This document shows positions 11,256 through 62,489 of a stretch of DNA of 64,000 bases, piece by piece; the stretch's first letter is position 1, and each line of letters begins with the position of its first letter. The DNA is from Conoideocrella luteorostrata. Its lineage: Eukaryota; Ascomycota; Sordariomycetes; Hypocreales; Clavicipitaceae. The translations under genes were made by a program, and so were the position numbers. A model generated the notes under the pieces. It was given only the letters and a program-made list of their open reading frames with translations, searched no databases and was not told the DNA's origin. The stretch covers positions 1 through 64,000 of the forward strand of contig JASWJB010000254.1 in the NCBI GenBank assembly GCA_032433595.1. The letters are read 5' to 3'.

Positions 11256-11320
11256 CGAGCCCGTGTGCCTCTAGTGGAACAAGGACGCCGTGTGATGCCC
11301 TGACACCGATACCGAACCCC

Positions 11321-42506: not shown

Positions 42507-44563
42507 TTAAATAAATGAATAACGAACCTCCGCTCGTACTTCATTCGCCAACTCTAGAGCTCGTTGTCTGCCTTCACGAGAGAAAACATTGAAGTAAGCT
42601 AGGAACGTATTTCTGCCCGTGCTCGGATGAGGGACCTGTTGCCCTTTCTTAATTAAACAGGCCGAGCGACTGATTTGCTTGGCCAGATCGGGTCGCCTCT
42701 CTTTGAGGTCGGCGCAAACGTCGTCAGAGTCGAAAATACCCTGGGAGGAGATGGGGTAATCGACTGGAATGAAGACCATCACGCATGTGTACTGTGGTCC
42801 AGCCTTGAACGGCTGCGACAAGACCCTCACGCGCTCCTTATCGCCGACTGCCAGAGCCAGTGCAACGCCCCAATAGTCAATGCCATGTGTCGATTCTACG
42901 ACATAAGAGCCTGTCATGCCGAGAGGCCGAGGATTTATTTCGATGAGCCAGGCCTTTGGCTCTTTGGATTGATCCTCAGCGGCGACGAGATCAACGACTC
43001 CGTTTTTCATCTTGTACTCTACGGTTGAGTCCTGGACTCGGCCCTCCAGGTGCATGATGCCATCTTTGATGCCCAGCTTCAGGAGTGTGTCCAGGAAGCT
43101 GTCGCGTAGCAATTCTATCTCTTGATGTGGAAGTATGGAAGGGTAGACGCTATTCAATTCGTGAAAGTTGGTTAGTGAGCCGACGCTTTGGCCGTTGATG
43201 TCTGCAGATTTCGGAAAGTCGTCGCAAACCTCGAAGAACAGGATCTCGCCATCCAATAAGATGAAGTTGATATCTACTTCTGGTCCTTCGCAATATTCTT
43301 CAATAACAAATTCCGTTCCATGTCGGGAGCTGTCAATAGCGCGCACTGCATCGGTCAGATACTCGACGCTATCGATACGGGAGACGCCCTCAGAGCTCCA
43401 CCCATCGCAGGGTTTGATGACAAGTGGATATTGAAGTTGGTGTTGTGATACAATTCCCAATGCGTCATCTAAGCTGAAGCCGTTGTAGGCATTGTGACCG
43501 ACAAATTTGCTCGTCAGATACTTGTTCGTCGCAGTCTTAAAAGCCTGAGGTGATGCAGTCTTTAGACCCAATTGCGGTGCGATTTCCGCAATATAGGGCC
43601 AGAATGAGTCGGCAAAAGTGACTATTCCATCTACTGGCTTTCCATAGGCCAGGACGGATTTGACGATATGATCGCCAACGTCGGCCTGGGGAGGGTTGGT
43701 CAATCGCGTTGGAATAAATGCATCCCGCCAGTGTGCATGCTCCTCCTTCTCCAGCCAACTGCCGCTATTCTCCAGTACGACAACGTTGATGCCTAGTGCT
43801 TTAGCTGCCATGTAGAGCCCCAGCCCATCTTCTGGATGAGAGCTATTTGCATCCACTAACACCAATGTCTTGGCTGTCGGTGTGCCCGGTGTTATCCACG
43901 GCAGCGACAGCCTGTTGTCAAGGTCCGATTCCACAGATATGGAGAGTGTCGTTTCTCTATTTGATAGGATTGATCCTGGAATTCTGCGGAGGATCAAGCC
44001 GGCTGCCGCAGCAGAAAAAGAAGTGGCAATGTCGGCTCTGTCATCGAGTGATTGCTCGCGGCCCGGATATTGCTGTAGCGGCTCCGCAAACGAGACAGCG
44101 ACCTCAAAATATTCAGAGTCTCTCAGGCGTAACGGTATGATGTCTGAGCGTACTATGTATCCTTCTTGTAATGGAACGATCAATGTCACCAAAAGGCTCT
44201 GATCGGCTTTGATTGTGGCTGTCATTTGCAAGCATTGGAGGAGGAATTGGAACTGCTTGGGGGACCCGAACGAGTCGGGCTCAGCAACTTCCATAGAACC
44301 ATTGACAATTTTGACCAGATATATTGAGTCCTTTTCGCCCAAGAGCGTCGCATCCAATGAACTGTTTTTGCAGTTGAACTGTATGCTTAGTGATTGCCAT
44401 GACTCCCTGGTTTGAGTGGCGTTGAGAATGCCCCACGACGCTTCTAGCAGGATGGCTATGTGTCTATCAGCAAGTGCGTCAATCGGATATTTTTGGCCAC
44501 GGACAGAACAACCGTACAATCATCTTTTTTTGAGAGGACTTGAAGTTCCTGAGCGCTCCTCAT
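42507..44563 (-). CDS. fsqD: ATP-grasp carboxylate-amine ligase, FsqD-like
   Basis: Enzymes of this fold use ATP to activate a carboxylate and join it to an amine. In the fumisoquin pathway the homologue is thought to attach an amino acid to the product. The long frame alone has no ATG at its 5' end because a stop precedes a TTG. An ATG at 44563 (A at -3) opens a 46-bp first exon. A 62-bp intron (44517-44456, donor GTACGG, branch GCTGAT, acceptor ACATAG) restores the frame. The second exon is 44455-42507, and the product has 664 residues. The ATP-grasp domain occupies about 300-590. It shows VIKPCDGWSSEGV (Lys 363), VIEEYCEGPEVDINF and the metal-binding EINPRPLG (521-528). The N-terminal 200 residues are a family-specific extension. 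The gene is divergent from the FAD hydroxylase, with about 1.1 kb between them. Confidence 0.9.
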
Positions 44564-45653
44564 GCTTGTGGCAGAAGAATCGTACCAATGCAGTGTTTGG
44601 CTATGGGCTAATTAGTCGTCGGATTCCACATGTCCTTGAAGTGCGATCAAACTAACTATGTCAGCGGTATGCAATGACTTAGGCAAGGGAAAGTCTAATG
44701 AAAGACTATTCCAGCGCATGTAACCTATGAAGACGATAAAAAAAGCTGAGAAAGTTGATAGATTGCGAGCCGTGCAGAGACAGAGTTCAAAGTTCATGTA
44801 GGACCAACAGACTGAGCATCCAATTGGCACGTGATGCAGCACGGCATTCACCATTGTATAGGATACCAATGCTGGCCAATTAAATGGCCAATGCAGATAA
44901 CATACGTATAGCACACAGATAGCAGCCCGAAGCACCAAACAACCGACTCTTTCGGAGGCTGGTGGCAAATATTGCGAGATAGATTCGGCGTCCTGTCAGC
45001 AGAGTGAGTGGGCCGCCTGCAATTGGAGTGTTAATTCCCAATTGCAATCGTGGAATTGACCAATGTCATTCGACAATTCATATGCCGAATAGCATGCGTC
45101 TTTCGTCAAGTCCGACATGCACTTGTCTTGACACAACGCCCTGGAGTTCTTGGTTGACTACATCGGACCTAGACGCAATTCAAAACCATGGCAGCAACCC
45201 AAAGTTCGGAGGGTGAAGTCAATGTAGGCCGAAACGGCTTTGCATTTTCGTACGCCTTTTACTAGGTCCATTGGTCAAGGTTCGTGGAGGCTTCCGATAA
45301 CCTTTCTGAAATTGACGTTTGACTGCAAACTACTGCTCGCAGTGGCGCGTGTAGATGCATTTCGGCCTTTTTGTGTCACTGCCCCTTCACTCAAACCAAA
45401 AGGTGATCCATTTAAACCGATTTCATTCTGCATTATTCTTGCTCAGCTTGCCCGAATGACAAGGTGTGGCCGATTGATCGGGATCGGGCCGGTCTCATCC
45501 TGCGCCATGCGGCTTGCCCGAGTCCCTGGAAGCTTGTCATAGTACCACCCACGTCAGCCCGCCGAAAGCAACCCCTTGCCTTGCCATGTTTTGCTAACCA
45601 TTGATAATGGCGCTTGAGACTTCTGGAAAGCATCTCTGGCAAGAACGCATACC
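44564..45653. promoter_or_regulatory. Divergent promoter of ATP-grasp ligase and FAD hydroxylase
   Basis: This 1.1-kb head-to-head interval has no coding frame of its own. It contains a CCGA-N5-TCGG inverted repeat followed by AGGCTGG at 44943-44962. A nearly identical element occurs in the next divergent promoter. Further CGG half-sites are TTCGGAGG near 45205 and CCGAAACGG near 45229. These are plausible sites for a Zn2Cys6 regulator. Confidence 0.5.
44943..44962 (+). promoter_or_regulatory. CCGA-N5-TCGG element, copy 1
   Basis: An inverted repeat of CCGA and TCGG half-sites separated by 5 bp is followed directly by AGGCTGG. The same right half and extension recur at 50251-50261. Confidence 0.4.
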
Positions 45654-47750
45654 ATGTCTCAAATCATCAGTGCACTCGTCGACGTTCTCATTGTTGGGGC
45701 TGGCCCAGCAGGGTAAGTTCTCATGAGAGAGCATCGACCTGCTTCGTGGAGTTCTGTCCGACTAATCATGACTGTAGCCTGACTGCTGCAAACTGTTTCA
45801 ACGGCACGAAGCTGAAAGTTCTGGTAGTTGATAAAAAAGATGGACCGGAGAAGACTGGGAGAGCCGATGGGCTTAAAAGCATATCTCTGGAGATCTTGGA
45901 CACATTCGGAATCGGGGATACCATCCTGACAGATTCACAGAGATGCGAAGAAATTGTTCTGTGGAACCCGGATAAAAATGGTGTCATCCAGAGGACGATG
46001 ACGATCGCCGATAAGGTGGACGAGCTGATGAAGCCAAGAGAAATCACGCTGGATCAAGGTATGGGCGTAGTTCAACTCAGTTACATAAGTTACCATGGGT
46101 TGTCTCAGACTAAAATTCTCAACTACAGGAAGAATCGAAGCTGTCATGGGCGAGAACCTTCAAAAACATGGCAACGTCGAAACGTGCTGGAACACGCAGC
46201 CGGTTGATGTAGAGCTAGATCCAGAGCTGGAAGACGACCCAGATGCCTATCCTATCACGGTCAATTTACATAACAATAAAACCCATACGAGGCGGACGAT
46301 ATGCGCGAAATATCTCATTGGAAGCGATGGTGGTCGAAGCTGGCTTCGAAAGTTTTTCAACATCAAGTTCACTGGTGACTTGACGGACTCGACATGGGGT
46401 GAGTAAAATGAGCTGGGCTGAGCGGAAGCTCTAGCCTTGATCTTTGGAACTTGTGCTAACATTTTCACAGGAGTTTTAAACATGATACCTAGGACAGATT
46501 TTCCAGACATACGAAAAGTCTTCGTTGTCCATTCGACCCGCGGTACGATCATGGGCGTGCCACGGGAAGATAAGCTCGTACGGTTCTATATTAGCATGGA
46601 CGGGGGTCATCGAAACACGTCATTAGATGCCAAAAGTATTACATCGGACAAAATAGTTCGTGCTGCGCAAGACATTCTTGCTCCGTACAAACTCGAAGCG
46701 GGCAAAATCCCCTGGTGGTCAGCTTACTGTGTGGGCCAACGAGTCGCCGACCAGTTTTCTTATCGCAACAGAGTCTTCCTCGCTGGAGATGCCGTCCATA
46801 CTCATTCGCCAAAAGCAGGTCAGGGTATGAACACTAGCATCCAAGACGGTTACAACATTGGCTGGAAGCTTCGCTACTATCTAGAAAACAGTTGCAACGT
46901 ATCGCTGGTTGCGACGTATGAGAGCGAACGACGTCCCGTTGCGCAGGCTCTCATCAACTTCGACAAGGAGTACCTCGAGTTCTTTGCTAGAACGGACACG
47001 ACGCATGACGAGTTCCTGGAAGCTTATCTTGCAGCTCAAAAGTTCACAACTGGAATCGGCATACGGTATGCGCCGTCCGTTGTGGTTCAAGCAACAGCCA
47101 GGCCGGAAGATTCGCATGCAATCGCTGCTGGACTCGCACACGGCATGCGGCTTCCGGATTTCCAGATGGTGAACCAGTCAGACGGCGTTCCAGTTCACAT
47201 CTATCACAGACTTACGCAGCAGGCTCGGTTCAGACTTCTCTTCTTCCCCGGCGACATTGCCAATGAGTCTACTGGACTGCGGTTTAAAACTCTTGGCAGT
47301 TGGATTGCCGAACATAAAAAAAAGGTTACTGGCATTGAATTCATCACCATACATAGCTCGATTCGTGCAGATGTTGAACTAATGAACCTGCATCCCGTGT
47401 TCCGTCCCTGGGATGATGACGATGGCTGGGACTATTGGGCTGTCTACGCTGATGATGAAAGCTATCATGATGGCCATGGTCACGCCTACGAGAGATGTGG
47501 AATTGACAGGAGCACAGGCTGTATGGTCTTGTTGAGACCTGACGGATATGTCAGTCTTATTTGCGGCTTGGACGATACTAATGCTCTTGTCACGTTCCTT
47601 GATCAGTTGAACTCACCATCAACCCCCACTCAAGCTCATGAGGGGAAGTATGTGGTACAGGCGAATGGCTCCTTGAAAACCGGACCCAAACAAGTGTGTC
47701 CACAAATTTTACGCGATTCGTGCTCAGTACAAACTTACAATGCTCTATGA
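45654..47750 (+). CDS. fsqG: FAD-dependent phenol 2-monooxygenase-like hydroxylase, FsqG-like
   Basis: Group A flavoprotein hydroxylase that uses NADPH and O2 to hydroxylate a phenolic ring. The expected substrate is tyrosine or a tyrosine-derived intermediate. There are four exons: 45654-45712, 45778-46058, 46129-46398 and 46471-47750. The introns are 65, 70 and 72 bp, with GTAAGT, GTATGG and GTGAGT donors. Branch sites such as ACTAATC and GCTAAC are visible. Phases agree throughout and give 629 residues, a normal length. Motifs: the GAGPAG dinucleotide fold at residues 15-20, the GSDGGRSWLR motif binding FAD and NADPH, and GDAVHTHSPKAGQG (from residue 309) for the FAD ribityl chain. The C-terminal 180 residues match the thioredoxin-like domain of phenol hydroxylases. 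It is divergent from the ATP-grasp gene and converges on the degenerate adenylation gene. Confidence 0.93.
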
Positions 47751-47978
47751 GAAAAGTAAATAAATGTACCTCATGTTTCTACTAGGTTTATTGGGTTTTA
47801 TAGCCATAGGAAGACTGCAATGACTACGAAACCTGACCTGAAGCCTGGTGTGGAGTGAAACTAGATTATCGTTCACCTTCAAATGTTATCGAAAGATCTG
47901 AGACTCTGAACAACCCCTGTCAATTCGAACAGTTGAAATCGCTTCAATTTTCTAGGAACTAACCAAGTGCCCGCTACA

Positions 47979-50036
47979 CTAGAAGTGTCCTCCAAACGCA
48001 GGCTTTCCCCGAGCTTCTCTGCCTCTGTGAAACCTTTCACGACCAGTGATCACTCCAATAGAATCCATCTCACGGCAAAATGCAAGCTCTCCGTCTCCGT
48101 TGTCAAGATACTTCACCAACATTCCAGTGCAAAATAATTTTTCACATTTTGCTTTCATTTGATCAGATGCCCATGCAGGATTGACGACGAACCTGGTCAC
48201 TTCTACGTCGTCTTTCACGTACCCATCCGCAATAGTTGGGCCACCAATAACAAGCTCCCCAACGGCGCCGACTGGAAGTAGCTCATCCCCATCCGTTGGA
48301 TTCACCACCCAGACCGAGGCGGCAAATGAAGCCCCAATGCTTGCGCGGAAAACGGAATTTTGTGTGGTTGCGTCTCTGGACATCGTGCAGAGCACTGATG
48401 TCTCAGGATTGCCATACGCTTTGAGTACCTCGCAGTTGAAACCCCCGTCGTCGATCTCGCATAGACTCATTGGATCCTGCATCAATATTAGACTTTTCAG
48501 GCTCGTAAGTTCTTTTGAGCGCAGACAATCTGCGACGCTCGCTGGTAAGAACGCGTGTGTGACCTGTTTTTCGTTGATCATGGCTGCCAGGCCATCGTCG
48601 TATTCTTGGCCAGGTACAATCACTAGACATGCGTTGAAAAGAAGGGAACTGAATATTTCGCCCGTACTGACAAAGTCTGTATAGAGAGCATTTTGTAGCA
48701 CCCTGGAGTGTTCATAGTACTGAAGTGCTAGACCTTGAGCAAGTGTGCCTGTGTATAAAGCACTGTGGCTCTGCATGACAGCCTTACGTTGTCCTGGACC
48801 GCTGGAGACAATCTGGATGAAGGCGTTGTCACTTCCGACATCTGAAATCTTGCCGTAATCTCCGTCTCTCTGTAGTTGATATAACAGCGGTGAGTTAACT
48901 ATGAGAAGTTGACGAGAAACACCGGCAAAAGTATTGGCGTAAGATTCCGAAACGCAAATAACTTCGCCTTCTATAGACGGCAACAAGTCCAAGGCATCCC
49001 GATACTGTTCCACAGATGACAAGGGGAGACAAACGGAACCGGATTTGAGAATAGCCAACATGGTAATGATGGCAAATTTAGACTTGTCAAAGCAGAACGG
49101 GACCAGAGATGTCTTGTTTTGATGTTGTTTTGCCAGCGTTTTGATATGTTGGGCTAGCACAGACGATGCTGCATCCAATTCCTCATAAGTAAGATCGCCA
49201 TCCCAAGCGGTAACAGCAGGGGCCTCAGGGTTATCCAGTGCCTTCTCTGAGAATGCCTCGTGCAATTTCTGTTTCAGAACCGGAAAAGTCCTCTGGTTCC
49301 ATTCTGCAATTTGTTTGCGATCTGTCGAACTCAGTCTCTCTATCGACGATACATTTTGGGCTGGCAGGTCAAGAATGGACTTTAGAATTGTGCGATATGT
49401 TTCACCAATTCGGTATGCCTGGACCGCGCTGATGGTAGACCTTCGATATCTCAGAGCCGCCGAAGGGCTGTTTGGAAAAGGCCTCAACTCCAGCAAAATC
49501 TCGTAAGCAGATAGGCTTGTATATTGTATGTGGCTATTAATTTCCCGGGAAACGATGGCGGTATTGCAAATGCTCTCTATGCTCAAATTTGGTTTGGCGC
49601 TCGCATCCTTGTACAGTTGGATATTATGGAGGAGGTCGATGATCTTCTCATCCGGCCTCAATTTATACTGCAAACACAAGAGCCCGTTGGAATAGTCGGG
49701 ACCCAGGATGTCGCAAGCAACAAATTGTTTTCCAGTATAGCTTTGCAATAGCAACAGCCAAGCCACTTGAAGTAGAGTCGGCGGCGAGATTCCGCACTCT
49801 TGGAGAAAGGAGTCGTTAACTTCGCTCAAGTCTTCAAGGTCCACTTCGACAAAGTTATCTTTTGCCGTTGTAGGTAATTTCTTTCCCGTAATGGGGATAT
49901 GACACATCAGAAAATGCTGTGTATTGGATAAGGAATCTTCAAAACGATCAGAAACATCTGAGTCTGGCGTGTTGCAGCCTCTGGAGGGCGGACTCGAGCA
50001 ACTGAGACTGCCACTTGCATCACTTCCAAAGATCAT
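47979..50036 (-). CDS. Truncated NRPS-like protein with a degenerate adenylation domain
   Basis: This intact 685-residue frame begins at the ATG at 50036. It has a condensation-like N-terminal segment (about 45-240) without an HHxxxDG motif, then an adenylation domain that stops early. The core motifs are eroded. A3, normally SGSTGKPKG, reads SSGPGQRKA. A4 has Phe in place of the substrate-binding Asp (YTDFVSTGEIF). A5 reads AYGNPET. A7, normally YKTGDL, reads FCTGML. A8 is GRERFHRGREARG, and the protein ends about 10 residues later, without A9, the A10 lysine or a carrier domain. A6 (ELVIGGPTIADGYV) is well kept. Shared features with the neighbouring NRPS-like gene (NPxWASD, ELVxGGPT) suggest an old paralogue. 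It probably cannot activate a substrate. It may be a structural partner, a regulator or a gene in decay, although no stop or frameshift interrupts it. Confidence 0.85.
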   Translation of the reverse strand: MIFGSDASGSLSCSSPPSRGCNTPDSDVSDRFEDSLSNTQHFLMCHIPITGKKLPTTAKDNFVEVDLEDLSEVNDSFLQECGISPPTLLQVAWLLLLQSYTGKQFVACDILGPDYSNGLLCLQYKLRPDEKIIDLLHNIQLYKDASAKPNLSIESICNTAIVSREINSHIQYTSLSAYEILLELRPFPNSPSAALRYRRSTISAVQAYRIGETYRTILKSILDLPAQNVSSIERLSSTDRKQIAEWNQRTFPVLKQKLHEAFSEKALDNPEAPAVTAWDGDLTYEELDAASSVLAQHIKTLAKQHQNKTSLVPFCFDKSKFAIITMLAILKSGSVCLPLSSVEQYRDALDLLPSIEGEVICVSESYANTFAGVSRQLLIVNSPLLYQLQRDGDYGKISDVGSDNAFIQIVSSGPGQRKAVMQSHSALYTGTLAQGLALQYYEHSRVLQNALYTDFVSTGEIFSSLLFNACLVIVPGQEYDDGLAAMINEKQVTHAFLPASVADCLRSKELTSLKSLILMQDPMSLCEIDDGGFNCEVLKAYGNPETSVLCTMSRDATTQNSVFRASIGASFAASVWVVNPTDGDELLPVGAVGELVIGGPTIADGYVKDDVEVTRFVVNPAWASDQMKAKCEKLFCTGMLVKYLDNGDGELAFCREMDSIGVITGRERFHRGREARGKPAFGGHF

Positions 50037-50208
50037 TGTAAATGTTCGTTGCGATACATGCTAAGAAACAGTCTGATTCAGTCGACAATCGAAGAAGCGG
50101 TGACAATACCGTAAAGTTGCCGCACTACCCACGTGTTATTGAGCATGCACATGGTCGAGCTCTTGAGAAGAGAGTAACTAAGCTGTTGAATCTTAGGGCT
50201 GACAGCCA

Positions 50209-50220
50209 CCGAATAGTCGG
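50209..50220 (+). promoter_or_regulatory. CCGA-N4-TCGG element, copy 2
   Basis: Inverted CCGA and TCGG half-sites with a 4-bp spacer (ATAG), 20 bp upstream of another such element. Confidence 0.35.
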
Positions 50221-50240
50221 CGTATACGGAGTAAGCTAAG

Positions 50241-50261
50241 CCGAATATTCTCGGAGGCTGG
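50241..50261 (+). promoter_or_regulatory. CCGA-N6-TCGG element, copy 3
   Basis: Inverted CCGA and TCGG half-sites with a 6-bp spacer, followed by AGGCTGG exactly as in the element at 44943-44962. Confidence 0.4.
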
Positions 50262-50844
50262 GGTGTCGAGGCAGATCATCGTCGGGTTGAAGACAGTACT
50301 ATTGGCCGCAACGCTTTGGAGGCGCCGCACATGGTAGCCGAGCTTTGAACTTCGAAATCAGCAATATCCCAAGACCAGCTCAAAAGCTCCTCAAAGTTAT
50401 CAAGCTTGGCAATACGTATGAGTACGTAATGTCTTCTGTTGTGCTGGCAAGGTGGCACAGTGGCTGATTTGGCCACGTTGCTATGTTCTTATGAGAAGAT
50501 GCCAAGGCTGTGTTATGCACATAGTGACGAGAAGTTGGGTAATTCCTGTTATTAACTCATACTGAGTGCTTCTCGATCAACACAGGCATGTGTTGCCGGG
50601 TTTGTCGCCAGGCCAGAGTCCCGTTGAGTAATTCGCATTGCACTGTATTACTATTGCAATATTACGTCTATCATGGGTATATCTAATGCTCCTTGGCGAG
50701 CGTTGATCAGATTCGCCTCGTCTTCCATACATGAACTGAACATTCCACAGCCACACACGACCACGCATCCCGCTGCTGAAGAGGGAGGAAGGCATTCTAA
50801 GACCATTTGACATGAAAGTTATTGAAATTTTCCGCACGAGGCTG

Positions 50845-50852
50845 TATAAAAG
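50845..50852 (+). promoter_or_regulatory. TATA box, NRPS-like gene direction
   Basis: A TATAAAAG match on the plus strand. It lies about 430 bp before the conservative ATG at 51278 but only about 90 bp before the ATG at 50934, which favours a transcript starting near 50900. Confidence 0.5.
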
Positions 50853-51277: not shown

Positions 51278-54200
51278 ATGGCACACAACGCGAGAATTGT
51301 CGGAAGATCTTTAGGAGACGCTAATTTCATGTCTTCGGAAATCAGTTCAGCCACTAATTTGCCAACTTTGAAATCTTCCACTCCAAAGCCCCAAGACTTT
51401 GGATTGGTCGAGTCCGCACCATTCAGCCCAACGAATACTACGTCCAGTCAAATAGAAAGAGAAAATATACTGATCAAAGCTTGGGCTTTGTTGCTTCACC
51501 ACTATTCTGTGTCAGATCCAGTTTGCTTTGTCGTTACCGGCAAGCTACGGGATGGCGACATTCACAACAGACAAGACGCATTGTCAGTAGTCTCACGCTG
51601 GTCAAGATCTTCGTCACATCCCAGCCTTGAACCTCAGCTCCAATTTGAGACGTACGCCGCTGCTTGGCACTCTAAGAGATCGAACACCCTGCTTCGACTT
51701 GGAGAACCTACGCAGGTTGATGGCGAGTTTAGCTATGTTCTGGAATGGGATGTTAGCAAGTCGCCGGATATCCGTCTCTGTGCAAGACGGAACAAAGTGC
51801 CACCCAAATTTGCAACCAGCCTGTGGGGTGCTCTCTTAGAACAGGTTGATCTACTGGCTTCGGGGCGCATGAAGAACGAAACTCTAAGCGATGCCGACCG
51901 CGAAGTAATTAGCAAAGAAACGACCTACCCACTGTTTGAGGAACAGTTGTGTTTACATCAGCTCTTCCAAGAGTCCGTTCGGATTGCTCCAAGTGCCGAA
52001 GCCGTAGCAGCTTTTGATGGTTCTCTGACCTATACCGAATTAGACGAGTTGTCAGATGTTCTAGCTGCCAGGCTCATTGAACAGGGCAATGTATGGCCCG
52101 GGAAGTACGTGCCTTTCTCTTTTGAGAAGAGCATGTGGATGGTAGTTGCTATGCTAGGAATCCTCAAAGCTGGAGGCGCAATTGTTTCCATTGACCCTTC
52201 TCAGCCTATTGCTAGAGCTAGCGAGATTCTCAAGGAGATTCAGGCCGACGTTATTGTCACTTCTTCCCAGCAAGCCTCCAGGTTTGACGATATTCCCACC
52301 GGAGTCATCTCAGTAAGCGCACAGACAATGAGAGCGCCTCAAAAGAATACTCTTTCATCTAAAAAGCTACCTATTGTTCGTCCAAATAGCCCTTCCATGA
52401 TAATTTTTACTTCTGGGTCAACTGGCAAGCCAAAGGGCATAGTCATCCAACACGGAGCAAGCTCTACGCGATTTGTCACGGAGGGCAAGGCCCTATCGTT
52501 CCAGGGTGCTAGAACTCTTCAATTCGCTGCGTCAACTTGGGATGTATTCATGACAGACATCTTCGCAACTTTAATTCACCGGGGTTGTGTTTGCGTTCCA
52601 AGTGAGGAGGATAGGCGGTCCAACCTTGCCAAATTTTGTAAGGAGAAGAGAGTGACACTTGCACTCATCACACCGTCACTTGCCGGCTTGCTCGATCCTC
52701 ATGACTTCCCAACCTTGAAAACTATTATACTTGGTGGGGAAGCTCTGAGGAAAGACGTCGCTCAGAAGTGGAAAGGTGCTGCAGGTGTAAAGCTCCTCCA
52801 AGGCTATGGGCCAGCGGAAACGGGGTTTATTGTCGGCACATCGAAGAAGAATGTTGAACTGAGCGATAGGCCAGCAGTCATTGGTTACGCACAGAATAAC
52901 TCTGTGTGCGTATTAGTCGATCCAAATAATCACAATTTACTTGTTCCTCGAGGAGCGACTGGTGAACTCGTAGTGGGCGGTCCCACGCTTTTTCAAAAAT
53001 ATCTCAATGACGCGGAGAAGACAAAATTGGCTACTATCAAGAATCCCCGTTGGGCGTCAGACCTCGACTGTGATGTTAGGAGATTCTACAAGACAGGCGA
53101 TCTTCTTCATCAGAGTCTTGATAGCTTAGATGGCTGCTTCGAGTTCGTCGGTCGCAAGGACGACCAGATCAAGTATCATGGGCAGCGAATTGAGGTCAAA
53201 GAGATTGAACACCATCTAAGCAGCATTGCGGATGCAAAGAGCCGAGTCATCTCCTGTATGGTTGTCCTACCTCAGGCAGGTATTTTGAGAGACAAACTGG
53301 TTGCGGTTGTCGAATGCGAAACGAATGGCACGCGAAGTACCGTGCCTGGCCTTGCAATTCGGGATGGCGATCACTTGTCACTTTCCACGGTCAGAACCGC
53401 GCTCTCTGACAAGCTTCCAGCCTACATGATCCCCAACGAATTAGTTGTGGTGCATGCAATTCCGCACAACAGTGCTATGAAGATGGACAGAGCTCGGGTT
53501 AAGTCCTGGCTATCTGAACTACATTCGGATTCAGGTGTCTCTATCAGTGGTTACGACTTCGCCAGCGAGAAGCTGTTGGCTCATGAGACAACGGCGAGGG
53601 CTTTGTCCAGGCATTACTCACTTCTTGTTTCGGGTGATGACAAAAACCGTCGTCAGGCTTATGAGGATAGAGACTTCAACCTACACGCGGGCGGCATTGA
53701 TTCCATCAACATCATATCGCTTTCAACATTTATATCAAGACATTACGAGGCACAGATTCCCGTAAGCGACTTGTTAAGCTCCAAGGCAACAATTCGCTCA
53801 ATTGCTTCCATTATCGACAAAAAGACTACTCAGAACCAAAGGACAGCAGCTATAGACCTCTCGACTGCCGAAAGTGAGGTTAGCCTGCAGCTGCAAGCCA
53901 TCCTACCTGGATCCAGTGGAAAGCAATTTGATGTGTCTATCAAGAACGTCTTCATGACAGGCGCAACGGGCTTCCTGGGTGTTGAAATTCTCCATCAGTT
54001 GATTACTCAAACAAACTGCCATGTGTATATTCTTGTAAGATCTTCGACAGAGGACACAGCCACGCAGCGAGTCATTGAGCGGGCACAAGAAGCTGGGTGG
54101 TGGGACCAATTGTATATCTCAAGATTCACTGCCTGGATTGGCGATCTGACGAAGCCACGGCTGGGATTGTCCAGCACACAATTGCAAATATTGCGAGGAA

Positions 54201-56350
54201 ATTCAGCACACACTATTGATACTGTTATCCACAACGGTGCAAAGGTCCATTACAATCTTGACTACGACTCTCTCAAAGCTGTCAATGTCACATCAACCGT
54301 TGAGCTCATACAGCTTCTGAATGAGCGCACAAGTCCCTTGAAGAGCTTCGTGTTTGTTTCAGGCGGCCAACAATTGAGCTTTGCTGATGACGACGATGAA
54401 GAGAATCTTTCCAAAGCTTTAAATGGTTCGGGATACGCTCGCTCAAAAGCCATGTCTGAGCTCTTTGTCAAGAAATTTGCAACACAGCAGCAAGGCTCCA
54501 AGGTGGAGCATGCTCAAGTCGTCAAGCCAGGGTTTATAATTGGCGACGCGAGCCGTGGTGTCGGGAACCAGGCAGATTTTATCTGGAGGCTCATTGCGTC
54601 CTGCGTTGAAATTGGAGCCTACAATAAGAAGGATGAACATGGCTGGCTGTTCATTTCTGATATCGCCCGAGTATCTCGTGCAGTTCTGGAAGGCGTTTTC
54701 AAGACGAATCTCGAGCTAAGTGTAAAGGTTCTAGATGGCATCAGATTCAAGGATCTGTGGAATCTGCTGCGGGACAGTTTTGGTTACGATCTTCAATCAC
54801 TTGATCCTGCTACTTGGCTGTCGCGAATCCGCAAAGCAGTGGCCGAGAAACAGGAGGCTCATGCGATGTTCCCGCTGCTTCACCTGCTAGAAGGGAATGA
54901 TGAGCCGATTGGAGTGCTCAATGGACCGTTGCAAGCAACACAAGGAGTTGAAAATTCCATCAAAGCAAACGTCGAATGGTTCCGGAGAATTGGGTTCATG
55001 CCTGACCCAAGCTCTGCGGCTACCCCTACATCATCAAATGACTATGAGCTTGTGGATGAAGATGCTTTCAATGTTGCAACTGTGCGCAAGGAATTTCCAG
55101 CTTTGCATCATGGAGTTGTTGCCTTCAACAACGCAGCTGGAACCGTTTTGCATCAGGATGCCATGGCAGGAACGCAGAAGTACATGACCGCGTTTCCCTA
55201 CGAACTGGGCCGGAACGATGCTCAAAGTCAAGCAAAGACTGAGAATCTCATTGAAACATATGGGGAACTGGCCGCGTTCATGGGCGCGGACCCAGACGAA
55301 GTTGGTGAGTTCAACGGCTTCATGTTATACTCATTACTACATCACGCAACAGAGCGGAGCTGGTGCTAACTTGAGAGGACAGCATTTGGACAAACGACGA
55401 CTTTCTTGCTCCGGATGCTTGGCCAAGCACTGAAGCCAAGCCTCAACTCTGATTGCGAAATAGTCGTGTCTAACCTTTGTCACGAAGCCAGTGCTGCGGC
55501 ATGGATTGCTTTAGCCAAGGACCTTGGCATCGCCATCAAATGGTGGGCACCACCCGCGGGAGGCGACGACCCGTGCCTGTCTGTGGAAACTCTCAAGCCG
55601 CTATTGAGCTCAAAGACGCGCATTGTGGCCTGCAATCACGTATCAAATGTTGTTGGCACGATCCATCCTATTCGTCAAGTAGCTGACCTTGTACACTCCA
55701 TTCCTGGAGCCATCTTGATTGTCGATGGCGTCGCCTTCGCGCCTCACCGCCCCATTGATGTCAAAGCTTTTGATGTCGACTTCTATTGTTTCAGCTGGTA
55801 CAAAGTGTTTGGTCCACATGTTGCACAACTCTATGGTCGACGCAGTGTGCAAAAGCGCTTCCTGCAGGGTATTAGCCACTTTTTCCTCAGCGATATGCCT
55901 GGCCTTGACTGGCGTTTGCGACTGGGAGCCAACTCGTTCGAGTTAGAAGCCGCCTTGGTTCCTATTACTCGCTACCTGAAGAGAGTTGGATGGGATAATA
56001 TTGTCGCCCAGGAGGCTCTGTTGCAGGATATCTTCCTTTCGTACCTAAGACGACGTCCCGAAACTTTCCGCATATTCGGCGAGAAGCAATCTAATCCAGG
56101 CAAGCGAGTTCCGGTGATTACTTTCCGGATCATTGGTGAGTCCTGCCTCGATGTCACCAATACAATCTGTCAGAAGGGTCGTTTTAGAGTCGTATCTGGG
56201 AACTGTTGGGCGCCCAGACCAACCCACGATGTATTAGGTTTGGATGAGGATGGGTTGATCCGAGTCAGCTTTGTGCATTACAACACGGTGGCAGAGGTTA
56301 AAGAATTCTGCAAAGAACTTGATTTGATTTTGACTTCTAAAACAGCATAG
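51278..56350 (+). CDS. fsqF: NRPS-like A-T-R protein fused to a PLP-dependent enzyme, FsqF-like
   Basis: Core enzyme of the cluster. Exons are 51278-55304 and 55383-56350 (intron 78 bp, GTGAGT donor, GTGCTAAC branch). Splicing joins DPDEV to AFGQTTTFLLR, giving 1664 residues. A condensation-like N-terminal remnant (to about 230) is followed by an adenylation domain (about 240-740). It has FTSGSTGKPKG, the substrate Asp in TWDVF, GYGPAET, YKTGDL, GRKDDQIKYHGQRIE and the A10-type Lys in AMKMDR. The carrier site is GGIDSI (Ser 809). A thioester reductase follows, with TGATGFLG (894-901) and YARSK (Tyr 1053, Lys 1057). From about 1268 there is a class-V aminotransferase or cysteine-desulfurase-type PLP domain, with Lys 1483 in SWYKVFG. 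In the fsq pathway the homologue activates an amino acid and forms a carbon-carbon bond through its PLP domain. A longer N-terminus is possible. Confidence 0.95.
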
Positions 56351-57272
56351 TCAACACGGTATAATTTTATCTTGGTTCTTCTGAGATGACCAATGAGTTT
56401 TAAGCACTGCGTTCAATTAGGCACTACTTTAATGGCCGTAGCCCTTTAAAGCACCGTATGTAGTAACATGATAAGCTGGCATGACCATAAATGTAGATGC
56501 GTTTGAGTGTTACAGAGAGTGTCTGATTCACTGAGTTTCATGTGGAACACAATGCTTGCAAAGGGGTGCGCGAAAGCTTGACATACATAGATAGCTTTGG
56601 AAAGTGCCCTCACTGCTTTTCCCTGTTTCCTTCCATATCCATCTTCATTGCTAGTAACACATTCATAGGGAGGGAGGCATAGCAATCCTGGCAAGGGCCT
56701 ATAGTCGGGAGAGTAAGTCAGGGCCATTCGGTGCGCGAGCACAAGCGGCAAAGCATGCGCGACGCCACTTCTCATGCGCTGCCGAACGACCTAGCTTATG
56801 CATTACCGCATCTTTCAAGGCGCGATATCAATACAGGAACGCAAGGGAAACGCCGAATGAGCGAAAAAGGAACAATTCGGCCTTTTGGGTGGTGTTGGGT
56901 GGTACGTAAGGGTCGGGCCGAAACTCCACGTCGGGCCGAACTTCGATTTGTTGGTCGCCGAATAACCACAACTCGGCTCTGAAGCTTGCATTGCCTCTCC
57001 GATGGGCCTGAAAAGAGACTGCAGTAAGCTGACTTGCTGATCTAAGCGATCCAGGTAAACAAAGGGGAGCATCCGATTCTTGGTTGGCTATGAGGCTCTC
57101 ATGGCATAGCTCTCTTACTGTCATTACATGACACGACTAAGCCGCGATTTGTTCTTTGGGCACTACGGAGTACATATTATGGTAAAAGTTTTATTAAACA
57201 TGTTATTCTAGACTTGTAGGCTCGCGTGTGCTTAAACTGTTCTTGTCAGCCAATGCTACTACTCGCCGCGGT
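56351..57272. other. Intergenic region between convergent cluster genes
   Basis: The region lies between two 3' ends and has no supported gene. It contains two copies of GTCGGGCCGAA (56912-56922 and 56930-56940), whose core TCGGGCCGA is palindromic, and a TACGGAGTA motif at 57164. Overlapping frames at 56446-57124 on both strands look non-coding. Confidence 0.55.
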
Positions 57273-58414
57273 TCAGGCCTTCTTCCTTAGCAGATAGATA
57301 CCATACGAGTTCTGTTGGTTCATCCAGCTGTCTATCAATTGACCGCCAGCGTCATTGCATATGTCCATGACCTTCATTTTAGGCCATTTCCCACTCCTGA
57401 TAGAGCGCATTGTTTCACCACGATGAAAGTGATACTCTGCGCCGGCGATATGTACTGTCAGATCTTTCTTGGCCACATAGAAGGCTTCGTGCATCCACAC
57501 GCTCGGATTCCATCGACCCATAAAATCCCAATGGTCTACGTCGAATGCGGCGGTGTCGAGTAGTTCGTTCGCATGGTCTAAGCCGTTGAGGACGAACTCA
57601 CGATTGGTCTGTGCCTCGTATGATCTCGCGATTTCATCCTGGTCCTCACTTCCATCCAGTCCGACTATCATTGAGGAGCCAGTGCGAAGAAAGCTGTGAA
57701 TGTACTCGGATGCTTCGTGTGGGGTGAAGTTGGCCATACTATTTCCAAGCCACAGCAATGTTGTCATCTGGGCGTTACTGCTGTCGCATGCCAGCCAAGC
57801 CGCGCAATCTTCGTAAGTACCAACTAGGCCTTGTATTTTTATATTCGACTTGTGCGCTGGAAAGATCGACTGTAATTCTCGAATGCAGCGTCTCAGCGCT
57901 ACTCGATCCACATCACAAGCCACGTAGTAAACGGATTTATGTTGCGCCTGCAGAGTCTGTAGTATCAAGGCTGTCTTCTTCATGTTTCTTCCGATGACCT
58001 GATCAGTATGCGGAACCATTTGTTAATTGCTTTTTTCTGAACATACCCAGCCCCTAGTTCTACCAAGCGATCGCCCGAGGAGATTGAATGGGTGATTTTG
58101 TGAACGACTGTGTGTAGAAGCGACCATTCTCTTGTGGCGGGATAGTAATCTGGAGACTCGAGGACCGTGTCGTAAAGAGACAACCCATGGTCATTCCAGA
58201 GTAGCAATGACGGAAGATCTTTGGAAGGGGCGGATAAACCCTTGACAATGGCTGGAACCAAGTTTTGCGCAGTGGGCTGCTGACGGATGTCGTGAAGTTG
58301 AATGAGCTCTTTGCATGGAGCTCCCACAACTAGTTGTGTCGTGTGCAGAACAGACTTCGATGCCGGATACGAATCGCGGAAGTTGGGAAAACTTGCGATT
58401 GTGGCCGCTGACAT
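57273..58414 (-). CDS. fsqC: SAM-dependent N-methyltransferase of the EgtD/EasF family, FsqC-like
   Basis: The enzyme transfers methyl groups from S-adenosylmethionine to the amino nitrogen of an amino-acid-derived substrate. Relatives include EgtD (histidine to hercynine) and EasF (dimethylallyltryptophan). Two exons, 58414-58047 and 57987-57273, flank a 59-bp intron with a GTATGT donor and a CTGAT branch. I chose the acceptor GGAAG over the nearer CAG. Only this choice keeps the frame and rebuilds the family motif ELGAGN (119-124) followed by MKKTALIL, equivalent to ELGSGN in EgtD. The product has 360 residues. Other conserved pieces are YYVACDVDR, GLVGTYEDCAAWL and LLWLGNSMANF. Hercynine synthesis cannot be excluded by sequence, but no EgtB-type partner is nearby. 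The gene is divergent from the FAD oxidase with a 642-bp shared promoter. Confidence 0.9.
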
Positions 58415-59056
58415 GTTCGCTGGCGCTATTTACAATAGAATGAATGATGAGGGTGCTGGTAGACACAAAAGAGAGGTTGACTTGCAAACGCCAGGACCAT
58501 CTAGGTAGCTGACTCTAACGTAAACAAAGACCGGAATCTATGACATAGAATGCACAGCATACGGGGAATGGGGTACTACTATTTATGACCTTGTCCCAAC
58601 ATACCAGAGCAGCCCCCTCACAAGCTGGCAGCTAAGCACCAACAATAACGGACGTTCTTTTTGACTTACCTGGTCCTACTCATCTCATTGTCCAAAATCA
58701 AGTGGGCGGGAGGAATTGAGAATCTGTCCGGTCATGCTTGTGGGGGCTGTGCATCCGTGAAACCTTCTCACTGGGTTCGGACCTGATCTGGGTGAGCTCG
58801 AGCAGCACCGATAACCGGGGTGGCGATTCGGAGTGTGAGATCGGCTCACTGGGTTCGGACCATGACTGCAGAAATCTATGCTCATTCCGCGTAGAAAACC
58901 ATATGGCGATACATATAAGCACGAGTCAATTATGCTGGCGAGAAATGAACAAGTCCTAAAAAACCTTTGGAAGACTAAAGCAAACTCCACCTCAATTAAA
59001 ATCCCAGCATATTATCTGGAGGGAAAAGAGTCAATATCGAGATTTCCACCTCCAAA
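58415..59056. promoter_or_regulatory. Divergent promoter of methyltransferase and FAD oxidase
   Basis: This 642-bp head-to-head interval carries two direct copies of a 16-bp sequence, TCACTGGGTTCGGACC, at 58768-58783 and 58846-58861. A further TTCGGAG sits at about 58827. A TATA-like ATATAAG at 58913-58919 lies about 140 bp before the oxidase ATG. Confidence 0.55.
58768..58861 (+). repeat. 16-bp direct repeat pair in the divergent promoter
   Basis: The two copies, TCACTGGGTTCGGACC, are identical and start 78 bp apart. Each contains GGTTCGGACC, nearly palindromic. An exact 16-bp repeat so close together is unlikely by chance and suggests paired binding sites. Confidence 0.7.
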
Positions 59057-60612
59057 ATGACAGTACCATCATCAGTTATCATCGTCGGCTCGGGCGTGTT
59101 TGGCCGTGAGTAAAATGGCGATATTTTGTACCGAATGCCCCCATGGTATCGTGCTGACATATTCAACCAGTCTCGACCGCGTTCGCAATGAGCCGCGATG
59201 ATCGATTTGCCAATTCAAAGATCACGCTCGTCGACAGGTGGAACTTCGAACCAGACTCCAGCTCCAAGTCGGTTCAGAACCCGGGAGCAGCCAATGCCGA
59301 CACATCCCGCGTCATCCGCCGTGATTACCCGCATGGTCCATATGCTTCTCTTGCACGGGAGGCAATGAAGCATTGGAGAGCAGATTTCGGGAAAGAGGGA
59401 AGATATGTCAACCAGCGCCTGATATTCTCTGGCGAAGGAAGCTCATTGCTTTTGCCCAAACGGCAAGGTGATACAGTGAATTATATCAAGACAGCGTACG
59501 GAGTCAGCTGCGAAATGACGGAGGGCGGAAAGGACGCACTCAAGGTTCTTGACTCCTTGAATGAGATTCGTGTTGAGCTTGGCAGCCACACCACCTTGCC
59601 AGACACTCTTTTGCCGGAAGAAAAGAAAACGGTCAACACGTTGAGAGGTTACATCTCGGAGGATTGCGGATGGGCCAACGCTGGCGCCAGTATCGAGTGG
59701 CTCCGTCAGGAAGTGATTCGCCTTGGTCGAGTGCAGTTCCACGTCGGGCATGTTGACAAGCTCAATGCCTCGGACGATGGCCAACGTATCCTAGGTGTTC
59801 AGCTAGAGGACGGATCAACACTGGAGGCGGAGCTTACAATTGTCGCTGCCGGAAGCCAGACCGCCCACATCCTGGGCATACCAAAGTTTTGCGACGTGTA
59901 CAGCGAAGTAGCCGCCTACATTCAACTTTCCCAAGCCGAATGTGATGAACTTCGCAGGAGAAACTGGCCATTGATAGTCAACGCTCATCGGGGCGTGTTT
60001 TCCGTAGGACCCGACCACGACAACTGCATCAAACTGGGCCATTTCTCCTACAGTGGCATGGCAGATGTGCTCAAGGATGCGCAGATCAAAGTCAAAACGC
60101 GTGTGGATGCTTCTGGGCGCACTCCTGAGCAGATCTGGACCGAAGATCCCAAGTACGGCTTCGGAGGTGATGTGACAATCTCTCAGCTCGGCGATGTTGT
60201 TGACTACGAGAGCCACAGAATGCTCAAGACCTTGGCTGACTTCCGCCTTTTCCTCCTTGAATTATTGGGACCATCAGGGCTCGAGGGAGTTAATACACTC
60301 GATCACTCGCAATGCGATGTCTTACTAAACAATATTGCCAATCGTCCGTTTACGAGGGTTCGAAAGTGCTGGTACAATGATACTCCGACATTGGACTTTA
60401 TTGTTGACTACCACCCTTCTTACGACAAGAGCTTGTTCATTGCGACAGGAGGCTGCGACCATGCTTTCAAGTTTCTCCCCATCATTGGTGAAAAAGTCAC
60501 TGCCCTGGCTTTGCATCACCGAGGTGTCAAGTCTGATGCACTCACAGAGGCTACACCTTCTCTAGGCGACTTGGTCGAGCTATGGAAGTTTCCCGCAGAG
60601 CTCATTCAATAA
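59057..60612 (+). CDS. fsqB: Covalent-flavin amine oxidase of the amadoriase/sarcosine oxidase family, FsqB-like
   Basis: Flavoenzyme that oxidises an N-methyl or secondary amine to an iminium. In the fumisoquin pathway FsqB does this on the N-methyl group, and ring closure gives the isoquinoline, as the plant berberine bridge enzyme does. Two exons, 59057-59105 and 59171-60612, flank a 65-bp intron (GTGAGT donor, CAACCAG acceptor). They give 496 residues beginning with a Rossmann motif VGSGVFGLSTAFAMS. The RRDYPHGPYASLA region matches the amadoriase active-site side. RKCWYNDTPTLDFIVDYHP carries the cysteine (416) expected to hold FAD through an 8-alpha-S-cysteinyl bond, at a position close to the one reported for FsqB. 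ATGGCDHAFKFLPIIG completes the FAD site. All key residues are present. A simple fructosyl-amino-acid oxidase role is the alternative, made less likely by the neighbours. Confidence 0.93.
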
Positions 60613-60814
60613 TCCTGTGCACGATCACGATTCTAGATGTGATTTTTTCCTGAAACCAGTGAATTTTTGATCGTCATAAGTATATTGCTGCATCTCCACC
60701 ATCCAGCTCAGTTTCTTAGGAGGAAACTGCATTGAGACTACCGATGAACAGTTTATGAAAGTCTAGATTTGTTTTCTTTGGTACCTTCATTAGGCCTATG
60801 CAGACTCCTCTGGT
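60613..60814. terminator. 3' intergenic region between oxidase and regulator genes
   Basis: A 202-bp AT-rich gap between the stop codons of two convergent genes. It must contain both polyadenylation regions. Confidence 0.4.
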
Positions 60815-62329
60815 TCATAATATTTGTGAGTCTAGATTGTTCAGAATAGCTTTAATTTGACGAATTAGCCGCTTGGCACGAACCTCCCTTCTATCCGCAC
60901 GTCTCGTAATTGATGGAGAATCATCCTGGTCATAGAGTGCATCAATCCAACCTGCAAAGAGCTTGTCTTGTGGTACACCTTCTCGAGTCGCGCAGAAAAT
61001 GCCAGCCTTCCTCGGCGATCCGATCAGGAAGCCCTCGATCTTTTCCAGCATGCTCAAGCTAACGCTTACCAGGCATTCTAATTGGAGACCATGGTCCCCG
61101 TCCAGCTCGAAGCCGTCTAATTGAACGCCTGGAAGAATTGGAGGGACGATGGGTTTTGGATGAGATAGGGACTCTAGTATTGGAGTCAGAAGATGATCGA
61201 AGGATTGTAAGATGTATGCATAACACGATAGGATAGATAATCGTGTCGGTATCTCTAGACGTGGCTTGGGGGCCAAAGATGAGGCCGATAATGATTTGCC
61301 TGACGTTGATAATCGCGAAGAGCCGCGGGATGAATGCCTGTCGGATCCTTCGCCATCAAATACCCAGCCGGTGTCAGCACGGCTCTCGCTCCAAGCAGAA
61401 CCACATGCCCAATGGAGGCGCTGGAGGATCGAGAGGAACTCTCGACAATGTTGCAGGGTCCGGCCAACATGTGGCGTACCAGATATAAGATCCTCGGTGT
61501 CCCCGTGTTCATCTAGCCCGTTTTTCTCGCGGAGTAATCTTTCATTCAACTTGGCGACCTCTTGTATACATGTCTTGACCAGGTCAGGATACCTGGAGGG
61601 CGCGAATGGCGGCGATTGTCTCCCCTGGCTCGAAAGCTGTCCCGATGAAGTGGTACCTGCGCGCACAGAGCTGAGATCCGCGATGAACTGATCGGGACTC
61701 CAATCTATAGACGGAGCTTTACTCATCAGTTGGGCTGTGTGTGCCCCAGCGTTGTCTCTAATTGGCTCCACGCGCGAGTTTGTCCCGGGGTCAAGCATCC
61801 AGCCTGGTGTTTGCAGATCCATGTCGTTCCATTCAATTTCGACATCACTTTGATATGAATGCCAGTCATTCGTAGCCGTTGGTTGTATGGTAGGGGAGGT
61901 TTCCATAGCACAGGGCTGCTTGGAACTCTCATGGAAGTGATGGGTCGGAATGGGACTGCGTCGGCGATGATTGACAGGACAATGGACGAGTGGATCAGAT
62001 TGTGTGCTAGACATAGGTGCAACCTTGGAGCTAGCACTAGAAGAAGCCGGAACGCTGCCATTCATGGGAGCGGAAGCATGAGGCCCATCACCTGCAGAAG
62101 TTATATCAGATCCAAAAGCGTCTTCATTCCTTTCCCGAGCCTGACCTCTTCTCGGGGCCGGCTTAACATTGTAGCAATCGACTTTCGCCCTTTTGCACCG
62201 GTCACACGGTATTTCATTCCGGATAAACCGGCTGGACGGGCTGGGCATCGGCCTCGCGGCACCGACGCATCGTAGTTTTTGGCCACGACAACGATCGCAG
62301 GCTCCCTTCCTACCAAATTCGGCATTCAT
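60815..62329 (-). CDS. Zn2Cys6 transcription factor, probable cluster regulator (FsqA-like)
   Basis: Nuclear DNA-binding regulator, probably the pathway-specific activator because it sits at the cluster edge. I start it at the ATG at 62329 (MNAEFGRKGACDRC), 504 residues. The frame runs further upstream to an ATG at 62362, but the Zn cluster normally lies close to the N-terminus. The two half-clusters are CDRCRGQKLRC and CDRCKRAKVDC, each CX2CX6C. They are separated by a 20-residue linker, longer than the usual 5-16. A Ser/Pro-rich middle follows. The C-terminal third is helical, with RLSILSCYAYILQSFDHLL and CLVSVSLSMLEKIEGFLIG, like the AflR-type regulatory region. The last residues form a basic amphipathic helix (RAKRLIRQIKAILNNLD), as is common in this class. 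No intron is required. Confidence 0.88.
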   Translation of the reverse strand: MNAEFGRKGACDRCRGQKLRCVGAARPMPSPSSRFIRNEIPCDRCKRAKVDCYNVKPAPRRGQARERNEDAFGSDITSAGDGPHASAPMNGSVPASSSASSKVAPMSSTQSDPLVHCPVNHRRRSPIPTHHFHESSKQPCAMETSPTIQPTATNDWHSYQSDVEIEWNDMDLQTPGWMLDPGTNSRVEPIRDNAGAHTAQLMSKAPSIDWSPDQFIADLSSVRAGTTSSGQLSSQGRQSPPFAPSRYPDLVKTCIQEVAKLNERLLREKNGLDEHGDTEDLISGTPHVGRTLQHCREFLSILQRLHWACGSAWSESRADTGWVFDGEGSDRHSSRGSSRLSTSGKSLSASSLAPKPRLEIPTRLSILSCYAYILQSFDHLLTPILESLSHPKPIVPPILPGVQLDGFELDGDHGLQLECLVSVSLSMLEKIEGFLIGSPRKAGIFCATREGVPQDKLFAGWIDALYDQDDSPSITRRADRREVRAKRLIRQIKAILNNLDSQIL

Positions 62330-62489
62330 CGAAAGAGGGAGAAGATATGCAAAATAGAGCATTACAACGCGCAACACAAGCCGGGGGGAAGGAGCATTCG
62401 CAACCAGATATATATGCCCGGCTACTCACGGATCTCGGCCGTTGGTTTCGCGTCAACACTCAGACAGACTTTTCAAGGGTACCCTGTGT

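What the first reader, a model, noticed from the sequence alone, without database searches (positions are those of the whole stretch)
42507..62377. Fumisoquin/imizoquin-type isoquinoline alkaloid gene cluster
Six enzyme types that rarely meet elsewhere lie together: ATP-grasp ligase, phenol-hydroxylase-like FMO, A-T-R-PLP fusion, EgtD/EasF-type methyltransferase, covalent-flavin amadoriase-like oxidase and a C6 regulator. Catalytic motifs of all five enzymes are intact after splicing. From memory this is the core set of the A. fumigatus fsq cluster, the fungal route to plant-like isoquinolines. The gene order and extra gene here suggest a variant product. Function is inferred by family resemblance, not shown.
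Basis: partly seen in the sequence, partly recalled or inferred. Interest (0 to 1): 0.88.

Follow-up and report, generated by a model that had tools for sequence, protein, structure and literature searches.

The report
Fumisoquin-type alkaloid cluster, insect fungus
This stretch of an insect-killing fungus holds the set of genes that Aspergillus fumigatus uses to make plant-like isoquinoline alkaloids, here with a changed substrate pocket and one extra gene that looks like an adenylating enzyme which has lost catalytic parts.

Summary
Seven genes (42507-62362) have intact reading frames: ATP-grasp, phenol-hydroxylase FMO, A-T-R-PLP fusion, EasF-type methyltransferase, FsqB-type oxidase, a Zn2Cys6-like regulator and an extra adenylation-like gene. 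The fusion model is identical to a deposited Conoideocrella luteorostrata protein. The set is fumisoquin (fsq) type, not imizoquin type. The oxidase is 66% identical to A. fumigatus FsqB with key residues kept. FsqF relatives occur in Aspergillus, Clonostachys, Fusarium, Aureobasidium and others, so the system is known.

New: (1) the FsqF adenylation pocket reads Phe-Ile at 330/331 in only 2 of 49 readable relatives; (2) its PLP domain is 55% identical to UstD, an enamine-forming C-C bond maker; (3) the extra gene keeps a confident C-lobe plus adenylation-core fold but lacks the A10 lysine, carrier domain, P-loop residues and A7 aspartate. Four close relatives were found, all ending likewise.

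No fsqE transporter is visible, but the contig ends 2.4 kb away. The product and the extra protein's role are inferred.

The parts
42507..44563 (-). fsqD-like ATP-grasp ligase, 664 aa, exons 44563-44518 and 44455-42507
   Evidence: PF18130 54.9 and PF13535 37.5 bits, both above cut-off; only weak solved relatives
45654..47750 (+). fsqG-like phenol-hydroxylase-type FAD monooxygenase, 629 aa, four exons
   Evidence: PF07976 170.8 bits; divergent from the fsqD-like gene across 1,090 bases
47979..50036 (-). extra gene: adenylation-like protein, 685 aa (C-lobe of a condensation domain plus adenylation core; no A10 lysine, no carrier domain; P-loop residues and A7 Asp lost)
   Evidence: divergent from the fsqF-like gene across 1,241 bases; the last ~20 codons may be spliced differently
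51278..56350 (+). fsqF-like A-T-R-PLP fusion, 1664 aa, intron 55305-55382; PLP lysine is residue 1483
   Evidence: identical to QQS21_009652 of C. luteorostrata
57273..58414 (-). fsqC-like EasF/EgtD-type N-methyltransferase, 360 aa, exons 58414-58047 and 57987-57273
   Evidence: TIGR03439 241 bits against cut-off 205.55 from the second exon alone
59057..60612 (+). fsqB-like covalent-flavin-type amine oxidase (oxidative cyclase), 496 aa, two exons
   Evidence: 66% identity to 6gg2, residues R66, Y121, C414, Y416, D444 kept; divergent from the fsqC-like gene across 642 bases
60815..62362 (-). fsqA-like Zn2Cys6-type regulator, 515 aa (start codon uncertain)
   Evidence: zinc-cluster pattern with a 20-residue linker; PF00172 12.9 bits, below cut-off 21

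Best explanation
This is a fumisoquin-type isoquinoline alkaloid cluster of Conoideocrella luteorostrata. Likely route: the ATP-grasp enzyme activates tyrosine (published proposal for FsqD, not biochemically shown). The PLP domain of the A-T-R-PLP fusion makes an enamine of a three-carbon amino acid, as its relative UstD does, and joins it to the tyrosine unit by a C-C bond (inferred). The A-T-R part binds and reductively releases the chain (inferred). The EasF-type enzyme N-methylates and the phenol hydroxylase makes the catechol (inferred from family). The FsqB-type oxidase closes the isoquinoline ring through the N-methyl group (shown with N-methyl-dopa for A. fumigatus FsqB, inferred here). 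The regulator switches the three divergent gene pairs on (inferred; no shared promoter motif was found). The extra protein is most likely a non-catalytic adenylation-fold protein that was under selection for most of its history.
For: Six of the seven fsq gene types, contiguous and with intact frames, against the list A-G given for A. fumigatus and C. rosea (PMC5999785, passages). FsqF-family best hits and FsqB best hit. FsqB residues R66, Y121, C414, Y416 and D444 kept; R66M and D444A variants have very low activity (PMC6222107, passages). PLP domain: UstD 485 bits, 55% identity over 404 positions, Schiff-base lysine kept; UstD generates an enamine nucleophile (PMC11976203, passages). The FsqB-like gene is the only close copy in the genome (next 105 bits, 34% identity). 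Extra gene: open over 685 codons at 40-44% identity to relatives; simulated substitution-only drift to 80% or 66% identity never left zero stops in 200 runs each.
Against: No fsqE-type transporter on the contig, though it ends 2.4 kb past the regulator. No shared motif in the promoters above random controls. No expression or metabolite data for this fungus. The adenylation pocket differs from A. fumigatus at two positions, so the product may not be a fumisoquin. The zinc-cluster match is below its cut-off. The FsqC-, FsqD-, FsqG- and FsqA-like proteins were compared with families only, not with the A. fumigatus proteins.
Confidence: 0.88

Rival explanations
1. The cluster is intact by sequence, but the extra gene is a decaying pseudogene with no role, a leftover adenylation module.
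For: It has lost P-loop and A7 residues that its four close relatives keep. At positions invariant in those relatives, A3 has changed at 5 of 11 and A7-A8 at 4 of 13, against 131 of 330 overall, so the P-loop is not specially protected. TIGR01733 scores 148 against a cut-off of 317.4.
Against: No stop or frameshift in 685 codons. Simulated drift to 90% identity left zero stops in only 10 of 200 runs, so any decay must be recent. The five motif windows together changed less than the rest (20 of 68 against 111 of 262; A5 only 2 of 13). Codon-position base composition is like that of the neighbours. A confident fold is predicted.
Confidence: 0.3
2. The extra protein is still an active adenylating or acyl-transferring enzyme that adds a further unit, its missing C-terminal subdomain being supplied in trans.
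Against: The P-loop Thr and Gly and the A7 Asp are lost in this copy, and the A10 Lys and carrier serine are absent in all five family members as modelled. The C-lobe alone lacks the catalytic HHxxxDG (motif recalled).
Confidence: 0.08
3. An imizoquin-type cluster making a tripeptide-derived isoquinoline.
For: The methyltransferase, phenol hydroxylase and FAD oxidase types are shared with imizoquin biosynthesis (recalled).
Against: No condensation domain above cut-off among the cluster frames scanned. ATP-grasp and A-T-R-PLP genes are present, which are fsq features; imizoquins derive from an NRPS tripeptide (PMC7854668, passages).
Confidence: 0.04

Closest known systems
Fumisoquin (fsq) cluster of Aspergillus fumigatus
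   Same: ATP-grasp, FMO, A-T-R-PLP fusion (57% identity), methyltransferase, FsqB oxidase (66% identity) and a Zn2Cys6-type regulator
   Different: Extra adenylation-like gene; no fsqE ABC transporter visible; pocket positions 330/331 Phe-Ile instead of Pro-Cys
Fumisoquin-like cluster 3 of Clonostachys rosea (PMC5999785, passages)
   Same: Same core types; also a hypocrealean fungus; upregulated by Fusarium spent medium there
   Different: It has the MDR transporter and an extra dehydrogenase; its FsqF falls outside the group that holds this one, at support 85
Imizoquin (imq) cluster of Aspergillus flavus
   Same: N-methylation, hydroxylation and oxidative cyclisation of a tyrosine unit (recalled)
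   Different: Imizoquins are NRPS tripeptides; no such NRPS seen here
UstD, decarboxylative aldolase of ustiloxin B biosynthesis (7mkv)
   Same: 55% identity to the PLP domain, lysine K258 kept
   Different: Stand-alone protein with an aldehyde partner; active-site positions 299, 388 and 391-393 differ; the 7mkv chain may be engineered at 391-393 (recalled)

Membership tests
fsq (fumisoquin) cluster | FsqF: A-T-R-PLP fusion without condensation domain | tested here: met
   the carrier domain scores 20.3 against a cut-off of 20.8 but keeps GGIDSI
fsq (fumisoquin) cluster | FsqB: covalent-flavin oxidative cyclase | tested here: met
   747 bits to 6gg2, 66% identity, key residues kept; activity and flavin linkage not tested
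fsq (fumisoquin) cluster | FsqC N-methyltransferase, FsqD ATP-grasp, FsqG phenol 2-monooxygenase | tested here: met
   family level only; not compared with the A. fumigatus sequences themselves
fsq (fumisoquin) cluster | FsqA Zn2Cys6 regulator | tested here: inconclusive
   six-cysteine pattern; PF00172 12.9 bits, below cut-off 21
fsq (fumisoquin) cluster | FsqE MDR-type ABC transporter | tested here: inconclusive
   none of 54 ABC_membrane matches (E <= 1e-10) is on contig C254; no ORF over 155 aa in the flanks (not domain-scanned); the contig ends 2.4 kb past the regulator
fsq (fumisoquin) cluster | makes a fumisoquin | not testable with these tools
   needs metabolite analysis
imq (imizoquin) cluster | NRPS that builds a tripeptide | tested here: not met
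   no condensation domain above cut-off among the eight reading frames scanned; cluster region only
NRPS adenylation domain (extra gene) | adenylation fold | tested here: met
NRPS adenylation domain (extra gene) | P-loop (A3), A7 Asp, A10 Lys, following carrier domain | tested here: not met
   TIGR01733 148 bits against 317.4
UstD-type PLP enzyme (FsqF C-terminal domain) | sequence family and PLP lysine | tested here: met
   485 bits, 55% identity, K1483
UstD-type PLP enzyme (FsqF C-terminal domain) | enamine formation and C-C bond formation | not testable with these tools
   needs enzyme assay

The most novel reading that the evidence does not exclude
The extra protein belongs to a small family of adenylation-fold proteins that lost catalysis and became a non-catalytic partner of the fsqF-like enzyme (holding, gating or docking the carrier domain). 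Together with the Phe-Ile pocket it diverts a UstD-like enamine C-C coupling to an isoquinoline scaffold not made by known fsq clusters.
Probability: 0.2. Interest if true: 0.65.

Novelty: new variant of a known kind. Interest (0 to 1): 0.42.

Why it matters
It puts an intact-looking plant-like isoquinoline pathway in an insect pathogen now studied for biocontrol, whose genome announcement highlights only cephalosporin and cyclopiazonic acid clusters. The UstD kinship gives a concrete, testable chemistry for the C-C bond that defines fungal isoquinolines of this type. A degenerate adenylation-fold protein inside such a cluster is a clean case for asking whether pseudo-adenylation proteins have a role.

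Tried and rejected
Imizoquin-type cluster: rejected, no tripeptide NRPS in the cluster. Extra gene as a recent copy of the fsqF adenylation domain: rejected. In its own genome the fsqF domain is only the 13th of 66 rows (32% identity), and in a tree of 82 adenylation domains the extra-gene family (5 rows) and the FsqF domains (13 rows) are separate groups, each at support 100 (quick tree, SH-aLRT only). Extra gene as an artefact of a frameshift at its end: alternative introns were considered; the spliced variant tried does not restore the missing C-terminal subdomain.

Promoter motif: gapped CGG pairs and k-mers gave nothing beyond random sets; a dyad scan hit the time limit. Linking the extra-gene family to fsq clusters elsewhere: not achieved. 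None of the four relatives' longest contigs (5778, 6674, 20032, 22489 bases) has the length of any contig in the 120 fusion hits listed, and a viral-contig scan found none. So the association with fsq rests on this one genome. The first structure model, from five sequences, was poor (pLDDT 34.7) and was not used.

Dropped rows: six of the 50 best FsqF-family proteins (P0047, P0048, P0053, P0056, P0066, P0070; short or broken models) were left out of the tree. One (P0056) has gaps at the pocket positions, hence 49 readable. Many of the 50 are close copies of one another. Two notebook remarks were overtaken: pocket differences at 299 and 301 (entry 1) were not borne out, and the genome paper was read in part 1 of 2, not whole.

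Full report
What is there. The window is bases 1-64000 of contig C254 (64788 bases) of a 46.4-Mb fungal genome in 620 contigs. The spliced fusion protein is identical over 1664 residues to QQS21_009652 of Conoideocrella luteorostrata, a species of Clavicipitaceae that kills scale insects (PMC12352038); the strain was not checked. Seven genes lie between 42507 and 62362 with intact reading frames: ATP-grasp (-), FMO (+), extra adenylation-like gene (-), A-T-R-PLP fusion (+), methyltransferase (-), oxidase (+), regulator (-). The first six form three divergent pairs with shared intergenic regions of 1090, 1241 and 642 bases. Family assignments pass curated cut-offs except for the regulator's zinc cluster and, narrowly, the fusion's carrier domain.

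Is it more than chance. Methyltransf_33 occurs at 3 places in the genome, ATPgrasp_N at 6, and Phe_hydrox_dim gives 7 matches. The oxidase has one close copy only; the next match is 105 bits at 34% identity. Their meeting in 20 kb is not chance.

Which system. PMC5999785 (passages) lists the A. fumigatus fsq genes: regulator, fructosyl amino acid oxidase, N-methyltransferase, ATP-grasp, MDR-type ABC transporter, NRPS-like enzyme and phenol 2-monooxygenase. Six of these seven types are present here. The transporter is not seen: of 54 ABC_membrane matches listed for the genome (E <= 1e-10) none is on this contig, and no ORF over 155 aa lies in either flank (not domain-scanned). But the contig stops 2.4 kb beyond the regulator, and its last 209 bases match no other contig. 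Imizoquins come from an NRPS-made tripeptide (PMC7854668, passages); no such NRPS is in the cluster, so the type is fsq.

The oxidase. Against A. fumigatus FsqB (6gg2) it scores 747 bits; the next solved relatives, fructosyl amine oxidases, score 59 or less. Identity is 326 of 494 aligned positions, 66%. R66, Y121, C414, Y416 and D444 are kept (C414 as the flavin-bearing cysteine is recalled), as are pocket residues V64, L100, V286, F293 and V295; I284 is Leu. In A. fumigatus FsqB the R66M and D444A variants have very low activity, Y121F a smaller effect and Y416F a very small one (PMC6222107, passages). The same paper shows conversion of N-methyl-dopa to the isoquinoline.

The fusion. In a tree of 44 of the 50 best-scoring relatives, the window's protein pairs with a metagenomic protein (P0035, 63% identity) at support 100. 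The other hypocrealean members, Clonostachys and Fusarium, fall outside the groups that hold it, at supports 85 and 90 (SH-aLRT only, LG+G4, long end branch, so the placing is moderate evidence). Reading the ten pocket positions (numbering of gramicidin synthetase PheA, recalled; anchored on motifs), none of 50 has Asp at 235. At 330/331, 31 of 49 readable proteins have Pro-Cys, 10 Gly-Cys, 2 Ser-Cys, 2 Ile-Cys, 1 Pro-Ser, 1 Leu-Tyr, and 2 (the window and P0035) Phe-Ile. This is the best hint of a different substrate or chain, and it is only a hint.

The C-C bond. The PLP domain's best solved relative is UstD (7mkv): 485 bits, 222 of 404 positions identical, Schiff-base lysine kept. The next, FGM3, scores 283, and cysteine desulfurases about 106-120. 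UstD makes an enamine nucleophile that adds to an aldehyde (PMC11976203, passages). The published fumisoquin proposal has dehydroalanine attacking activated tyrosine, and spathullin takes label from cysteine (PMC6943532, passages). FsqD was proposed to form tyrosyl phosphate and has not been characterised biochemically (PMC12568646, passage). A UstD-type enamine would serve the same purpose. No paper in the held library holds both UstD and fumisoquin. Subscription papers, including the original fsq and imq papers, could not be read, so this link may be in print elsewhere.

The extra gene. Its protein has the C-terminal lobe of a condensation domain followed by an adenylation core. The model built from 43 sequences is confident (pLDDT 82, pTM 0.84). 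It superposes on a C-A didomain from residue 203 of 8hlk and on PheA residues 19-439, so the condensation N-lobe and the adenylation C-terminal subdomain appear to be missing. Two searches, each scoring about 8,000 candidates, gave four close relatives at 40-44% identity: one in Lepidopterella palustris and three in unnamed public sequence; the remaining hits are general NRPS proteins at 30% identity or less. All five end just after the A8 region; for the relatives this rests on gene predictions, which an unrecognised intron could cut short. The four keep much of the P-loop and the A7 Asp; the window's copy has lost T410, G412, P417 and D639 (own numbering). All five lack the A10 lysine and the carrier serine. 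At positions invariant in the four relatives the window differs at 131 of 330; the P-loop window is no better kept (5 of 11), but the five motif windows together are somewhat better kept (20 of 68) than the rest (111 of 262), A5 most of all. The frame is open: simulated drift to 80% or 66% identity never left zero stops (0 of 200 runs each), and to 90% did so in 10 of 200 (substitutions only). Most of its history was therefore under selection; recent decay is not excluded. I favour a non-catalytic protein (about 0.6) over a relic (0.3) and an active enzyme (0.08); the recount of motif windows did not change these odds.

What is against. No expression data, no metabolite, no shared promoter motif, no transporter, and no second genome in which the extra gene sits beside fsq genes. 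Whether the fusion is unique in the genome did not complete, because the search was never served.

Known or new. FsqF-family proteins occur in Aspergillus, Penicillium, Fusarium, Clonostachys, Xylariales and Aureobasidium, so the system is known. The papers that hold 'fumisoquin' (28) and those that hold 'Conoideocrella luteorostrata' (20) do not overlap. The genome announcement (part 1 of 2 of its text read, up to the acknowledgments) names cephalosporin C and cyclopiazonic acid clusters, not this one. I rate it a new variant of a known kind.

Noticed in passing
29463-34325 (+): Long frame of a family B DNA polymerase with exonuclease domain and C4 zinc finger (probably Rev3/Pol zeta, name recalled), a housekeeping neighbour of the cluster.
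   Followed up: partly
35525-38593 (-): PH-domain plus MMM1/SMP-like protein directly left of the cluster.
   Followed up: partly
11231-13471 (+): Protein kinase with a long N-terminal stretch without a Pfam match; GC skew is strongly negative around its start (-0.23 at 10001-12000).
   Followed up: no
51278-56350, and relatives P0021-P0070: None of 50 FsqF-family proteins has Asp at adenylation pocket position 235, which usually holds the alpha-amino group (recalled); the natural substrate may not be a plain alpha-amino acid.
   Followed up: partly
62207-62266 (-): The regulator's zinc-cluster pattern has a long 20-residue linker (residues 33-52) between its two halves, which may explain its sub-threshold score.
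   Followed up: partly
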